Shown here piece after piece: positions 28,118 to 33,452 of a stretch of 44,710 nt of DNA. Every line of letters begins with the position of its first letter. Position 1 is the first letter of the stretch. The stretch spans positions 1-44,710 of IMG/VR virus record IMGVR_UViG_3300027834_000012; one strand, written 5' to 3'. The notes under the pieces were generated by a model. That model was not told the origin of the DNA. It worked only from the letters and a program-made list of their open reading frames with translations, and made no database searches. Origin of the DNA: a virus. Both the position numbers and the translations under genes were made by a program.

Positions 28118-28654
28118 ATGAAAACGATCCAGAAAACTAGTATTGGTTTTGCTATTAGCATGCTTACTAGCCTAGCTAGCGGAGTTGGATCCGCTTCTAC
28201 AACAGCAACTGATCTCAATACCTCGAGAACAGCTGTTGTGCATCAGTGTTCTTCTGCTGCGAAAACAAGGCGCATCTCTGAGTTTTGTGTGTCAGTAAGA
28301 CGTAGTGCTCACAAGGCTCATAGGCTAGCTCAGCTTTTCGAAGCAGATGCATATCGGTTATCTCAGCTGGAAGGTGATGTAATCGTTGATAGCGAACCAT
28401 ACACCGGCATGGTTGATTCTTTGCGTGATGTAGAAGATCAGATCAAAGAAATTTTACAAAATGTAGATGATGACTTTGCTAAAGAAGCTGGTCTGAAAGA
28501 ATTGCGCAGAAACTTAGCACTAGCCCGTTCAAATGCAGTTACTGCTGAGCGCATGGCTTGGCAGACATCAGCGTCACCCGAAATTTCAGAGGGTGCTACC
28601 CCTGGGGAAGCTTTTGCTGTAGCAGCTGAGTACATGACAAATAGAATTGGTTAA
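28118..28654 (+). CDS. Secreted hypothetical protein upstream of YafO-like toxin
   Basis: 178 residues. N-terminal signal peptide (MKTIQKTSIGFAISMLTSLA, cleavage near GSAS|TT at 27-28), then a helical mature domain with two cysteines (Cys44, Cys57) and EDQIKEILQNVDDDFAKEAG. The coding sequence is AT-richer than the tail genes. It ends 11 bases before the YafO-family gene, so the two are likely co-transcribed. It does not resemble YafN antitoxins. Function unknown. Confidence 0.68.
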   Translation: MKTIQKTSIGFAISMLTSLASGVGSASTTATDLNTSRTAVVHQCSSAAKTRRISEFCVSVRRSAHKAHRLAQLFEADAYRLSQLEGDVIVDSEPYTGMVDSLRDVEDQIKEILQNVDDDFAKEAGLKELRRNLALARSNAVTAERMAWQTSASPEISEGATPGEAFAVAAEYMTNRIG

Positions 28655-28665
28655 GCAGGTGGTTA

Positions 28666-29130
28666 ATGAGGTCCAGGAAAAAAGCACCGTTGGATGTTTC
28701 GTTTCATCCAGATACAGCATATTTGTTTGAGAATTTTTCCAAAGATTTTCCTGGCCTAATGGCAAACCTTGAGTCCGATTTTACTGAGTACATGCATTAT
28801 TTTCTTGGTGATTCAGAGACTATCCCCGCTAGGTTTGGGAAAGATTCCCCATATACTAAGCCGGGTATCATTGCATCAGCTGGATTAATGCATATTCACA
28901 TTTGCGTGCCACCACGTGTAGGGTTCTCCTCAAAGCGGCTTGACAAGCGAGTGTGCTTGGTAAGCGAGCCTGAAAGAGACGCAGCTCTTGTATACACCCA
29001 GCATCTATATGATGAAGAAAGATACTGTATTTTAGCACTTCTATATCCATACGCTCATAAACTAGCAGATGAAAAAGGCAGTTTAATTCAATATTTAGCG
29101 AACCTTTCACGCCAATTTAGGGAAAGCTAG
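28666..29130 (+). CDS. YafO-family toxin-like protein
   Basis: 154 residues. The C-terminal two thirds follow E. coli YafO in order: DFTEYMHYFLGDSETIPARF (YafO DFISYKRDGVLPDIF), FGKDSPY, GLMHIHIC (RVAHIHL), ERDAALVYTQHLYDEERYCI (EAHLVYCQGAFDEQAWLLI) and PYAHKLADEKG (PEPHKLARDNN), ending SRQFRES. YafO is a ribosome-dependent mRNA interferase. A good AGGTGG site lies upstream. Its partner antitoxin is not evident: the upstream gene encodes a secreted protein. About 30 extra N-terminal residues (KKAPLDVSFHPDTAYLFENF) distinguish it. Confidence 0.8.
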   Translation: MRSRKKAPLDVSFHPDTAYLFENFSKDFPGLMANLESDFTEYMHYFLGDSETIPARFGKDSPYTKPGIIASAGLMHIHICVPPRVGFSSKRLDKRVCLVSEPERDAALVYTQHLYDEERYCILALLYPYAHKLADEKGSLIQYLANLSRQFRES

Positions 29131-29149: not shown

Positions 29150-29175
29150 AAAACCCCGCCCCAGCGGGGTTTTTT
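29150..29175 (+). terminator. Terminator of the secreted protein/YafO cassette
   Basis: AAAACCCCGC, loop CCCA, GCGGGGTTTT plus T-run. Confidence 0.85.
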
Positions 29176-29276
29176 ATGCCCGGTCACTAAACCCTGTAAT
29201 TCCAAACAGGCCAACCGACCCCCTTTAGAAGCAACCGCAACGCCACCATAATGAACAGTCAGCTTGACGGCTGCGC
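29152..29276 (+). repeat. Terminator-promoter repeat, copy A
   Basis: About 125 bases closely matching copy B at 30641-30766 (offset about 1490); 48 bases are identical (29192-29239). It includes the terminator, an inverted repeat CCTGT...ACAGG (29193-29210) and a promoter-like pair TTTAGA (29224) / CATAAT (29247) with 17-base spacing. Confidence 0.85.
29224..29252 (+). promoter_or_regulatory. Promoter-like pair in repeat copy A
   Basis: TTTAGA, 17 bases, CATAAT. Both boxes and the spacing are conserved in copy B. Points into the TPR/HEPN cassette. Confidence 0.45.
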
Positions 29277-29483: not shown

Positions 29484-30287
29484 ATGCCAAAGCCAGTCAC
29501 TGTCGCACATGCTGTTCAAGACGCTTTTCAGCTGTCGGGATGGCTTGAAGATAATCGCCCTGAGATCACAGATTTTCAGATTCGGCGGCTAAAGCGCATG
29601 CTGTTCGACAAGCAGGACAACCGCTTTCTGTCATTAATTAGGTCGGCTCTGGTAGCAGAGATTGAGCGTGATTTTCCTGCGTTTGACGAAGCGTTAAGCA
29701 CCTTAAAAGACCAAGTTGACACGCCGCTACTCTTGAACCTTTCCTCGATAGCATTATTCGCCAATAACCCGGTGCTTGCACGAGACCTTTCCAAGCGTGC
29801 CATGGCAATAAATCCAGGAAGCGAGAAAGTGCTCAACTTTGTTGTTCAAGCGCTTTGGTTCTCGGGTGATGTTAAAGCGGTAGCAGATCTACGAAATAGA
29901 ATTGAAAACTTGGGTGGGGAAATGGAATCAATTACTGACGACGCTGAAGTTTCAGCAATCCTCGCCGAAGCGAATATATCGGTCGAGCACTACACCCAAT
30001 ACGTTGACAATATTCATGGCGTCATACGCCAGCATTTGGCGCACCAACGCAACGTGAGGCTTGAACTGCTCATCGACACAGCTGAGCACGAGGATGGCTC
30101 CAAAAACATTGTCTTTGAAGTAATGACCGATGAAGACGAAGAACGTCTGGATAAACTTGATGACATGATGCTTGAAATGTCTATCGACGATGACAAGATG
30201 AATCCAGACCTTCGGCGTGTTATGACGTGCTTAGTCAGGGATATACGTCAGTTCCCGGCAACTCATGACCCGATTGAGGCTTTTTGA
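29484..30287 (+). CDS. TPR-like helical protein of a two-gene cassette
   Basis: 267 residues, all helical in appearance. The region about 70-140 (TPLLLNLSSIALFANNPVLA, RDLSKRAMAINPGSEKVLNF, VVQALWFSGDVKAVADLRNR) reads as two to three tetratricopeptide-like units. The C-terminus is acidic (MTDEDEERLDKLDDMMLEMS). It lacks a strong ribosome site. It ends 1 base before the HEPN gene start, so the two form an operon. It could be a sensor or antitoxin-like regulator of the HEPN partner; this is inference. Confidence 0.65.
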   Translation: MPKPVTVAHAVQDAFQLSGWLEDNRPEITDFQIRRLKRMLFDKQDNRFLSLIRSALVAEIERDFPAFDEALSTLKDQVDTPLLLNLSSIALFANNPVLARDLSKRAMAINPGSEKVLNFVVQALWFSGDVKAVADLRNRIENLGGEMESITDDAEVSAILAEANISVEHYTQYVDNIHGVIRQHLAHQRNVRLELLIDTAEHEDGSKNIVFEVMTDEDEERLDKLDDMMLEMSIDDDKMNPDLRRVMTCLVRDIRQFPATHDPIEAF

Positions 30288-30288
30288 T

Positions 30289-30642
30289 ATGCCTCATCGG
30301 TTAATTGAAATTGCTTCCTACATCAGCGATATGACTGTAACGCCTGCGGATGAGATATACCCACACCAACTTAGAAGCATGATTAACCGCGCTTATTATG
30401 CTGCTCACCTTACGGCAAAGCAGGCATGTGATGACCATGGCTTGGTCGGTATAGGCAAATCACATGAGCGGGTAGTAGATGCGCTCGGGAAAAAGTGGAA
30501 GCCTGAAAGTAAGAAGCTTGATCAGCTAAGGGTTCTGCGCAACGATGCAGACTACAAGTGGGATAGGCCTATTACGTGGCAGGATGCTAGAAAGTCACTC
30601 AAGAAAAGCCGAGAAATTATAGAAGTGCTCCATAACCACTAA
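30289..30642 (+). CDS. HEPN-domain protein
   Basis: 117 residues from the ATG at 30289 (GAGG 9 bases upstream; an earlier ATG at 30265 overlaps the neighbour). The HEPN pattern is visible: RSMINRAYYAAHLTAKQACD (helix with YYAAxH), SHERVVDALG, LDQLRVLRNDADYKWDRPIT with the R-N-x-A-D-Y motif, and a last helix ARKSLKKSREIIEVL. Many HEPN proteins are RNases in toxin-antitoxin or abortive-infection systems. The canonical RxxxxH is replaced here by RNDADY, so catalytic activity is uncertain. Confidence 0.75.
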   Translation: MPHRLIEIASYISDMTVTPADEIYPHQLRSMINRAYYAAHLTAKQACDDHGLVGIGKSHERVVDALGKKWKPESKKLDQLRVLRNDADYKWDRPITWQDARKSLKKSREIIEVLHNH

Positions 30643-30663
30643 CCCCGCCCAAGCGGGGTTTTT
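30641..30663 (+). terminator. Terminator of the TPR/HEPN cassette
   Basis: AACCCCGC, loop CCAA, GCGGGGTT plus T-run; first part of repeat copy B. Confidence 0.85.
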
Positions 30664-30713
30664 AATGCCTGGCCGACAAACCCCTGTAATTCCAAACAGG
30701 CCAACCGACCCCC

Positions 30714-30742
30714 TTTAGAAGCAACCGCAGCGCCACCATAAT
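30714..30742 (+). promoter_or_regulatory. Promoter-like pair in repeat copy B
   Basis: TTTAGA, 17 bases, CATAAT; points to the C4-like RNA and antirepressor. Confidence 0.45.
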
Positions 30743-30804
30743 AAACAGGCAGCTTGACGCCTGCGCCTACTTGGGCCAACATTCCCTTACCGCTGCAAAA
30801 TCAG

Positions 30805-30875
30805 TGGTTCGGGCGTAGGAACCCGATAGATGCAGGCGCACCGCGCCTAAGGGCGCTTTTTTTGCGCCCGTTATG
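30805..30875 (+). ncRNA. C4-type antisense RNA of an antirepressor operon
   Basis: A hairpin TCGGG (30809-30813) / CCCGA (30822-30826) exposes the loop CGTAGGAA, whose GTAGGAA is complementary to TTCCTAC at 30929-30935 in the downstream leader. The leader TTCCTAC can otherwise pair with GTAGGAA at 30961-30967. A GGGCGC-T7-GCGCCC hairpin (30851-30869) follows. Phage P1/P22-type c4 RNAs act this way, sequestering the ant leader and blocking antirepressor synthesis. Ends are approximate. Confidence 0.68.
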
Positions 30876-31010
30876 GCGGGCCGTGCGTGGGACACCTTCG
30901 GGTGTGCCGGGTTCCTGTATCTCCGGTCTTCCTACCCCGCGTACGGTTCGCCTCCCAACTGTAGGAAGGTTGTTGGCGAACTCCGACTTAAGATACGGGA
31001 GTTCCAAGAC
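30873..31010 (+). other. Antirepressor leader with in-frame leader peptide
   Basis: An ATG at 30873 opens a frame (MAGRAWDTFGCAGFLYLRSS...) continuous with the antirepressor, like the icd/ant arrangement of P1-type immI regions. The leader folds: GTTCGCC (30946-30952) pairs with GGCGAAC (30975-30981), enclosing the GTAGGAAGG segment. Confidence 0.5.
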
Positions 31011-31907
31011 ATGACAGCTATTGCCGCAACACATATTTCTAGCCAGCCAGAAGCCTTTATCCATGCCGTACAGGGCGCACTTAAAACCACTTCATTGAAA
31101 GTGGCAGAGGCGTTTGGAAAGCGCCATCGTGATGTGCTTCGCAAGATCGATAACCTTGATTGCCCGCAAGAATTTACATGCGCGCATTTTTGCGCTGATG
31201 TTCAAACCGTTAATTTAGGGCAGGGTGCCAAACGCGAATCTCGGGTTATCGAAATGGATAAAGACGGTTTCATGTTTCTGGTAATGGGTTTCACAGGTCA
31301 AAAGGCAGCTCAAATTAAAGTTGCCTATATAAACGCCTTTAACTGGATGGCGCAGAAGCTAAGCCGAACCGCCACACCCGACGAGCGCGCAGGCCTACGA
31401 GCAGCCGTGACTATGCTCACCACCAAGCGTGGCTTAATGCACAGCGCCGCCTACTGTCTGGTGCACCACCGGTTCAACGTCGATCACATTGACGAGCTAA
31501 GCCCCGAGCAACTGCCGGAGGCGGTCGAATACATTCACCGCATGACGCTAGAAGGCGAGTACCTAGGCAAGCAAACACTGCCCGCCCCCGTAGCGGAAAC
31601 CATCGACTACCCGCTAGCGCGGAAGTGGCAGGATTGGCAAGAGCATCAACTGGTGGGCATGGACGCCATGTACCACTCGGACATTCGCCGTCTACTAACG
31701 CAACTGGCCGAAGCCTCGCGCACCGGTGCCACTATCAAGGTGGGCAGCATCGCCAACGTGCAGGAAGAATTTAAAGCGCTAACGCACCTTTGCTCGATGA
31801 ACGGGATTAACAAGATCGGGGCCCAGGAAAAGCTGGCGCACCTAGAAAGCCTGGTCGCCTCACTCGCCAAAACCACTGGCTGCCTGCAAAACACGCTGGC
31901 GCGTTGA
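31011..31907 (+). CDS. Rha/P22AR-type antirepressor
   Basis: 298 residues from the ATG at 31011 (ACGGGAG upstream). N-terminal Rha domain (about 15-105: TTSLKVAEAFGKRHRDVLRK, NLDCPQEFTCAHF, SRVIEMDKDGFMFLVMGFTG, KAAQIKVAYINAFN). The C-terminal part, from AGLRAAVTMLTTKRGLMHSA to VDHIDELSPEQLPEAVEYIH, matches P22 antirepressor C-terminal domains. It should bind and inactivate a CI-type repressor and so trigger induction; expression is probably held down by the C4-type RNA upstream. Confidence 0.85.
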   Translation: MTAIAATHISSQPEAFIHAVQGALKTTSLKVAEAFGKRHRDVLRKIDNLDCPQEFTCAHFCADVQTVNLGQGAKRESRVIEMDKDGFMFLVMGFTGQKAAQIKVAYINAFNWMAQKLSRTATPDERAGLRAAVTMLTTKRGLMHSAAYCLVHHRFNVDHIDELSPEQLPEAVEYIHRMTLEGEYLGKQTLPAPVAETIDYPLARKWQDWQEHQLVGMDAMYHSDIRRLLTQLAEASRTGATIKVGSIANVQEEFKALTHLCSMNGINKIGAQEKLAHLESLVASLAKTTGCLQNTLAR

Positions 31908-31942: not shown

Positions 31943-32057
31943 GTTAAATCACTGGGCCAACGCTGTCCAGGCATAGCCCGTGGGCGGTAATAAAAATTAG
32001 AAAATACGCCGCTGCTCGTTTATGGTTCCTTGCGGGAACTATAAAAAGGGGAAGGGG

Positions 32058-33452
32058 ATGGATTGGTCACTCTATGAGGATGAAGCAGGGTTTTTTAAGC
32101 CCAAAAGGCTATCGATCACCAAGGGGCCTATCAAGGTTAAAGACGAAACAGACCTTCAGGATATGCGGGAGGATTTGAAAGGCCTGCCCATGGAAAAGGC
32201 TAAGCCGCATTTTGAGAAGTTTTTCAACGATGAATATACCTATGAGCTTGAGGTTGAAGACGTAGAAAGTGCCTTCAATCGGGCGCCAAAAGCTATGCTT
32301 GGTGAGCTTTATTGTTTTAAAGGTTATTTCTCAGCATTAGACGAACTGCTAGATATGCAGCCAGGTATCAAATCTATTCCGTTGCCATTATCTGAAGCTC
32401 AGACACACCAGGCGTTAAAATCCGACCTGATAAAGCGGTGGGTGCCAAGCAGTCAGGAGGACTGGGAAGCTATTCTATTTCATGGCTTTAAGGTGAATGA
32501 GCTTAAAGCATTGATGCAAGAGAATGGGCTAGAGCCGAAGGGAAGGAAAGCTGATTTGGCGAAAGATCTAGCCAGCTTCGCCCAACAAAATCCTGAAAAA
32601 TTACCGCCCTGCCACGAGTTTTTGCCTGCTCCCAATCTACTGCCCGCGCTGAAAGCGCTGGTGGATAGGATGGTGTCTGGTCTTGCGGATGCCATTCAGA
32701 CCTACCCTTATTACTACCAATACAACGCATGGCAAGAGCTAATGAGGGAATGGCCTGCTTATGAATGGCCTTGGTTAGCGGACATAGTAAAGAGTAAAGG
32801 CGGTGCGCCTGGTGCGGCGGCGATCAAAGAGATAAAGCAGCCAGAAAAAGCAAGCAGCCATAGTTCGTATGACGACGATGAATGGACAGGTTACGGCAAA
32901 TCAACGGCCAGCCTAGAGGTGGGCATTGCGCCGCGACCAAGCAAGCCAAAATCCACCCCTCCACCAGAAAAGCCCGTGCCGCCAGTCAATGCCAAAAGCC
33001 CATCAAAAGGCGAGCCTGCATGGGCATCAAACGATTTTGAAAAGCCTGTTGAGGTGCGATTTAAGTACCAAGGGGAGCGAGACCAAACACCCAAAGAGCG
33101 GCATGTTCAAATAGAGCGGGTTTCGTCCAAAGGTGGCAGGATTTTCCTTAAAGGCATGTGCCTAGAGAGCATGGGCATGAAAATGTTTATGGTTGACCGC
33201 ATGGTGGGCGAGATCGTCAGCCCCGTTACAGGTGAGCTGCTTAATCCTCGTGAACACACGAAAGTGGATGATTTAAGGCAAGCGATTGCTTTATTAGGCC
33301 GTAGGCCTGAGAAGAACGCCCTTGAACCACCCGTTTGTGAAGGAAGCTTAGAATCGACTCCCTCGGTGAAGTCGGAGAAAGTCACAAAAAATATCGAAAC
33401 TGAAAAGCAAGGATTCGTTCGTCGTATTCTCAGCATGCTAGGTTTTAAGTAA
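32058..33452 (+). CDS. SAP-motif and WYL-like domain protein
   Basis: 464 residues from the ATG with GGGGAAGGGG upstream. About residues 150-180 (FHGFKVNELKALMQENGLEP, KGRKADLAKDLA) match a SAP DNA-binding motif. A proline-rich linker (about 285-325) joins to a C-terminal region about 337-410 (VEVRFKYQGERDQTPKERHV, GGRIFLKGMCLESMGMKMFM, VDRMVGEIV) that resembles a WYL-type ligand-sensing fold. WYL proteins often control defence or stress genes. No enzyme motif is visible. It forms a pair with the membrane protein downstream. Confidence 0.68.
   Translation: MDWSLYEDEAGFFKPKRLSITKGPIKVKDETDLQDMREDLKGLPMEKAKPHFEKFFNDEYTYELEVEDVESAFNRAPKAMLGELYCFKGYFSALDELLDMQPGIKSIPLPLSEAQTHQALKSDLIKRWVPSSQEDWEAILFHGFKVNELKALMQENGLEPKGRKADLAKDLASFAQQNPEKLPPCHEFLPAPNLLPALKALVDRMVSGLADAIQTYPYYYQYNAWQELMREWPAYEWPWLADIVKSKGGAPGAAAIKEIKQPEKASSHSSYDDDEWTGYGKSTASLEVGIAPRPSKPKSTPPPEKPVPPVNAKSPSKGEPAWASNDFEKPVEVRFKYQGERDQTPKERHVQIERVSSKGGRIFLKGMCLESMGMKMFMVDRMVGEIVSPVTGELLNPREHTKVDDLRQAIALLGRRPEKNALEPPVCEGSLESTPSVKSEKVTKNIETEKQGFVRRILSMLGFK

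What the first reader, a model, noticed from the sequence alone, without database searches (positions are those of the whole stretch)
29484..30642. TPR-like plus HEPN pair as a candidate two-gene defence or toxin system
A helical TPR-like protein and a small HEPN protein are one base apart and bracketed by a duplicated terminator-promoter block. HEPN proteins are frequent RNase effectors in abortive infection and toxin-antitoxin pairs. The RNDADY motif in place of RxxxxH and the partner with no known antitoxin resemblance suggest an unnamed type.
Basis: partly seen in the sequence, partly recalled or inferred. Interest (0 to 1): 0.82.

Follow-up and report, generated by a model that had tools for sequence, protein, structure and literature searches.

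The report
Phage-borne TPR–HEPN two-gene cassette
Many temperate phages carry the same unnamed pair of adjacent genes, a helical-repeat protein followed by a small HEPN ribonuclease-type protein, which probably works as a locked RNA-cutting toxin that stops an infected cell before other phages can multiply.

Summary
Gene A (29484-30287, 267 aa) is followed after one base by gene B (30289-30642, 117 aa). A duplicated terminator/promoter-like block brackets the pair. B has the HEPN fold (Pfam PF05168 just above cut-off; AlphaFold pLDDT 95; Foldseek 2hsb TM 0.82). A has TPR-like helices plus a C-terminal alpha-beta-beta-alpha-beta domain (pLDDT 90). The pair is conserved: I collected 41 non-redundant A-B pairs from Pseudomonas, Acinetobacter, Vibrio, Klebsiella and uncultured phages and from bacterial genomes, with A upstream, touching or overlapping B. 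In 392 genomes of one order, all six full-length A genes sat beside B. No Pfam, NCBIfam, PHROGs or PADLOC family names A or the pair. The motif argument fails: "RNDADY" is a described HEPN-T variant whose histidine lies elsewhere. Here that is invariant H59, aligning with catalytic H64 of the type IX retron HEPN; the Tyr pair aligns too. Best explanation: a moron-type toxin-antitoxin or abortive-infection module in which A restrains, and probably triggers, ribonuclease B. Activity, toxicity and defence are untested. Novelty: new variant of a known kind.

The parts
29484..30287 (+). Gene A: TPR-like helices (res. 7-142) plus C-terminal alpha-beta-beta-alpha-beta domain (res. ~153-253); putative regulator/antitoxin/sensor
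   Evidence: ORF; AF2 pLDDT 89.8, pTM 0.87; family HMM leave-one-out E=1.6e-13
30289..30642 (+). Gene B: HEPN-T (PF05168) protein with R29, Y36, Y37, H59, R84, D88, Y89; putative RNase effector
   Evidence: Pfam 22.4 bits; phrog_5176 E=4e-10; AF2 pLDDT 95; Foldseek 2hsb TM 0.82
29152..29276 (+). Upstream copy of the repeated block: terminator hairpin of the preceding gene, palindrome CCTGTAATTCCAAACAGG, promoter-like site
30641..30766 (+). Downstream copy of the block: starts at the B stop codon and leads into the C4 RNA / antirepressor
   Evidence: the single copy in relative L003 lies at this place
29224..29252 (+). Promoter-like TTTAGA-17-CATAAT in block 1, candidate promoter of the pair
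   Evidence: not above chance as a scan; conserved in both copies and in L002, L003
30714..30742 (+). Same promoter-like site in block 2, candidate promoter of C4 RNA/antirepressor
29158..29170 (+). Intrinsic-terminator-like hairpin before the pair
30643..30662 (+). Terminator-like CCCCGCCCAAGCGGGGTTTTT just after B
   Evidence: sequence; repeat D2

Best explanation
A-B is a phage-cargo (moron) toxin-antitoxin-like abortive-infection module. B is a homodimeric HEPN ribonuclease using a non-canonical site (H59 with R84, RNA held by Y36/Y37). A, made first from the same transcript, holds B inactive, most likely through its C-terminal alpha/beta domain, since some bacterial B genes have an upstream partner with only that domain. 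The N-terminal TPR array is then the sensor: an incoming phage component binds it, B is released or switched on, RNA (tRNA or mRNA) is cut and the lysogen arrests. Shown here: both folds (predicted), the conserved pairing and order, and invariant residues that correspond to validated catalytic residues of a related HEPN. Inferred: binding of A to B, inhibition, the trigger, RNase activity and defence.
For: HEPN fold. Seven residues invariant in 38 B sequences: R29, Y36, Y37, H59, R84, D88, Y89; in 41 non-redundant pairs D88 is D in 40. Type IX retron HEPN H64, R122 and Y40-42 are required for T5 defence (PMC13405049); in the profile alignment to 36ht_I, retron Y41/Y42/H64 fall on Y36/Y37/H59. 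Conserved A-before-B order with small gap or overlap in phages and bacteria. Six of six full-length A genes in 392 genomes lie beside B. A-B distance matrices r=0.71, 0 of 2000 permutations. C-terminal-domain-only partners in three genomes match the A profile (E 2e-4 to 4e-3, best shuffle 0.29). Cargo character: GC 46-48% against 55% for the window and 56-58% for tail genes; varied insertion places. Precedent: Tha, a prophage HEPN defence activated by tail proteins (PMC11087260).
Against: No activity, toxicity, binding or plaque data exist for this family. Sequence similarity of A is low (about 10-27% to the window A). The equivalence R84 = retron R122 lies outside the aligned stretch and is inferred. 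No known trigger, and no A-B complex was modelled. Yersinia phage YP3 has B without an A and one contig (L132) has an upstream protein that no A profile matches. Distance correlation is also expected from plain co-inheritance.
Confidence: 0.6

Rival explanations
1. Plain addiction (toxin-antitoxin) module that stabilises the prophage; the TPR region only serves to bind B or to be degraded, and no phage component is sensed.
For: Order and coupling are those of type II/VII TA operons; a YafO-like toxin gene lies just upstream in the same slot; short partners without TPR exist.
Against: The TPR array is kept in nearly all phage copies; B is related to a retron defence effector.
Confidence: 0.2
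2. B acts during the phage's own lytic cycle (host RNA shut-off or RNA processing), with A timing it.
For: The window pair sits among late tail genes, as in PG1 and Vieuvirus.
Against: In other phages it sits beside integrase, antirepressor or replication genes; in the window it has its own terminator/promoter-like block and lower GC.
Confidence: 0.1
3. B is catalytically dead and the pair is a binding complex, for example anti-defence or a structural accessory.
For: Canonical Rx4-6H is missing.
Against: H59, R84, Y36, Y37 and Y89 never vary in 41 non-redundant sequences, as expected of an active site; an equivalent retron site is active.
Confidence: 0.1

Closest known systems
HEPN-T / UPF0332 (PF05168), AF0298-like (PDB 2hsb)
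   Same: Fold, RxxxDY in place of Rx4-6H, alternative upstream His
   Different: 2hsb was solved as a single protein; here B comes with partner A
Type IX retron HEPN (retron-Kva2, PDB 36ht)
   Same: Aligned Tyr pair and His, non-canonical HEPN site
   Different: Partners are RT, ncRNA/msDNA and a winged-helix protein; none here
HEPN-MNT (HepT/MntA, type VII TA)
   Same: HEPN effector in a two-gene operon; HepT structures are among the top Foldseek hits
   Different: Partner is TPR + alpha/beta, no nucleotidyltransferase; no Rx4HxY
Tha (S. aureus prophage HEPN defence)
   Same: Prophage-borne HEPN RNase defence
   Different: Single 301-aa protein with RNSIMH; inhibited by antisense-encoded Ith
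LA2681 HEPN with TPR gene; AbiU2 with Sel1 gene (Anantharaman 2013)
   Same: HEPN in operon with a helical-repeat protein
   Different: Other HEPN families with conserved Rx4-6H

Membership tests
HEPN-T (PF05168) | Family profile and HEPN fold | tested here: met
   22.4 bits against cut-off 22; TM 0.82 to 2hsb
HEPN-T (PF05168) | Alternative conserved His when Rx4-6H is lost | tested here: met
   H59 invariant in 41 non-redundant sequences; described in PMC3710099
HEPN-T (PF05168) | Homodimeric RNase activity | not testable with these tools
   needs biochemistry
HEPN-MNT (type VII TA) | MNT nucleotidyltransferase partner | tested here: not met
   A has no NTase hit; TPR + alpha/beta model
HEPN-MNT (type VII TA) | Rx4HxY motif, Tyr AMPylation | tested here: not met
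   RNDADY in its place
Type IX retron | Catalytic His and RNA-binding Tyr of the HEPN | tested here: met
   H59, Y36, Y37 align with H64, Y41, Y42; Arg equivalence inferred
Type IX retron | RT, ncRNA and winged-helix protein in the operon | tested here: not met
   No RT or winged-helix hit among the neighbouring genes; no retron RNA in the Rfam scan of the window
Tha | C-terminal HEPN with RNSIMH in a ~300-aa protein | tested here: not met
   117-aa HEPN without that motif
LA2681 HEPN + TPR | TPR gene in operon | tested here: met
LA2681 HEPN + TPR | HEPN of the LA2681 family with Rx4-6H | tested here: not met
   only PF05168 hit; no Rx4-6H
PADLOC candidate PDC-M05 | Both component models match | tested here: not met
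   M05B weak with B (E=8e-4); no model hit for the window A
Type II TA | Antitoxin-first order with touching or overlapping genes | tested here: met
Type II TA | Toxicity of B and neutralisation by A | not testable with these tools
   needs expression tests

The most novel reading that the evidence does not exclude
A new family of modular immune switches: a minimal inhibitory alpha/beta domain that restrains a non-canonical HEPN RNase, onto which phages have grafted a fast-diverging TPR sensor for proteins of competing phages; found in temperate phages of several gammaproteobacteria, with simpler forms in bacteria.
Probability: 0.35. Interest if true: 0.78.

Novelty: new variant of a known kind. 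Interest (0 to 1): 0.62.

Why it matters
If right, it adds an unnamed, widely spread prophage defence/TA family that PADLOC-DB 2.0.0, NCBIfam and PHROGs do not name, ties phage HEPN-T proteins to the retron-type active site, and offers a simple two-protein system for asking how a TPR sensor unleashes a HEPN RNase.

Tried and rejected
Single-protein searches for A in phages, plasmids, viral contigs and genome contigs found nothing; for B in plasmids and viral contigs likewise. Relatives came only through phage PG1's B. BLAST of window A against PG1 A is not significant; homology rests on the family HMM. Foldseek of A against PDB gave only generic TPR/PPR matches with E above 0.04; the C-terminal domain has no identified solved relative. 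An A profile scan at E 1e-6 mostly catches generic TPR proteins; only hits above 200 bits were counted. Short partners in planctomycetes, Geodermatophilus and others (L012, L025, L028, L029, L031, L046) resemble the C-terminal domain in size and layout only; profile comparison is not significant. I did not try to model an A-B fusion. A cited 2026 Nature paper on a prophage abortive-infection protein is not held, so overlap with it could not be checked. PDB 9xbc/9xbd (closest HEPN by sequence) have no paper that I could find.

Full report
Observation. The window is an IMG/VR virus record with phage tail genes. Gene A (29484-30287) and gene B (30289-30642) lie between the tail genes upstream and a Rha-type antirepressor gene, with the tape-measure gene further on. 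A repeated block of about 125 nt brackets them. The relative L003, whose tail genes match closely, has a single copy of the block, directly before its own C4-like/antirepressor region, and other cargo genes upstream. So pair plus one block copy looks like a 1490-nt insertion unit (inference). The pair is 46-48% GC, the window 55%, tail genes 56-58%.

What the proteins are. B reaches the PF05168 cut-off and phrog_5176, and is modelled as a five-helix HEPN at pLDDT 95; best solved relative 2hsb/AF0298 (TM 0.82, rmsd 1.6), then MntA-HepT. A is modelled at pLDDT 89.8 and pTM 0.87 as helix pairs 7-142 followed by alpha 153-162, alpha 167-185, beta 193-201, beta 207-215, alpha 219-234, beta 247-253. 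The A-family profile matches consensus TPR proteins over positions ~48-151 (CTPR3 4.5e-14).

The motif. RNDADY replaces Rx4-6H, but this is not a new departure: Anantharaman et al. 2013 (PMC3710099) list D for H in several HEPN-T proteins, with another conserved His before it. Here H59 is that His: it is invariant, with R29, Y36, Y37, R84 and Y89, in 41 non-redundant sequences. The profile alignment to the type IX retron HEPN puts retron R34, R39, Y41, Y42 and H64 on R29, R34, Y36, Y37 and H59. In that retron H64, R122 and Y40-42 are needed for T5 defence and tRNA cleavage is reported (PMC13405049, a preprint). R84 = R122 is my inference. Of the two PDB entries closest in sequence, 9xbd and 9xbc, the second carries F where the DY tyrosine stands.

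Conservation of the pair. Phage PG1 has a 266-aa protein two bases before a HEPN. The same arrangement is in Pseudomonas phage YMC11/02/R656, Acinetobacter Vieuvirus phages, a Vibrio phage, Klebsiella phage Chronis and a fecal phage. Viral contigs gave 49 loci: an A or A remnant precedes B in 48 (L018 keeps only the last 54 codons of A; L120 and L124 are cut by contig ends; L112 needs the larger HMM), many of them near-identical copies. The exception is L132. Genome scans found B-profile hits in 13 of 369 genomes of a class and 10 of 392 of an order, part of the weak hits being true MNT-HEPN pairs (L047, L050, L051, L063). In the order scan all six A hits above 200 bits are beside B (the next hit has 55 bits). 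Leave-one-out HMMs place the window A (E=1.6e-13) and B (3.3e-19) in these families against 2000 shuffles. A and B distances correlate (r=0.71; 0 of 2000 permutations). The nearest relatives are L056 and L095 (A 26%, B 37%).

Partners without TPR. In L043, L044 and L024 the partner is only 98-123 aa and matches the C-terminal part of the A model (for L043/L044 hhalign probability 74%). Other short partners are similar in layout only. This suggests, without proving, that the C-terminal domain is the part that handles B and the TPR region is an added sensor.

Setting. Neighbouring genes differ between phages: tail genes, integrases, antirepressors, head protease. This fits cargo rather than a structural part. 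Tha shows that prophages do carry HEPN RNase defence triggered by tail proteins. The Gifsy-1 prophage too has a predicted HEPN protein that was taken as a candidate RNase (PMC9879122).

Naming. No Pfam, NCBIfam, PHROGs or PADLOC model matches the window A significantly, and no system model matches both genes. Literature searches found no description of this pair, within an open-access library only.

Verdict. A real, conserved, unnamed two-gene family; function inferred. New variant of a known kind (HEPN effector plus regulator), not a new category.

Noticed in passing
window 30869-30958 (+): C4 antisense RNA (RF01695, 74.1 bits, gathering 45) directly before the Rha/antirepressor gene (ORF 30873-31907; the coding start is probably ~31011); classic C4-ant immunity arrangement.
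   Followed up: partly
window 28666-29130 (+): YafO-like toxin (PF13957, 50 bits) just before the first block, with no recognisable YafN antitoxin beside it; GC 42%.
   Followed up: partly
window 28118-28654 (+): 178-aa protein with a signal-peptide-like N-terminus, similar to phrog_22162 (unknown), low GC; more cargo in the same slot.
   Followed up: no
window 32022-33452 (+): 476-aa protein with SAP-like and WYL domain hits, between the antirepressor and tape-measure genes.
   Followed up: no
window 29193-29210 and 30683-30700: Imperfect palindrome CCTGTAATTCCAAACAGG inside both block copies, possible operator.
   Followed up: no
L071 (G691:C58): C-terminal domain of A alone (138 aa, E=3.5e-12) in a phage tail gene cluster without B nearby: decayed copy or orphan antitoxin.
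   Followed up: partly
L018 4544-5066: Intact B with only the last 54 codons of A left: natural loss of most of A while B stays open.
   Followed up: partly
L010 (Yersinia phage YP3) 2889-3866: B gene without A, behind two near-identical copies of a small phage protein gene.
   Followed up: no
L042 569-1197: Phd-like / PIN-like toxin-antitoxin pair on the opposite strand right beside an A-B pair in a bacterial genome.
   Followed up: no
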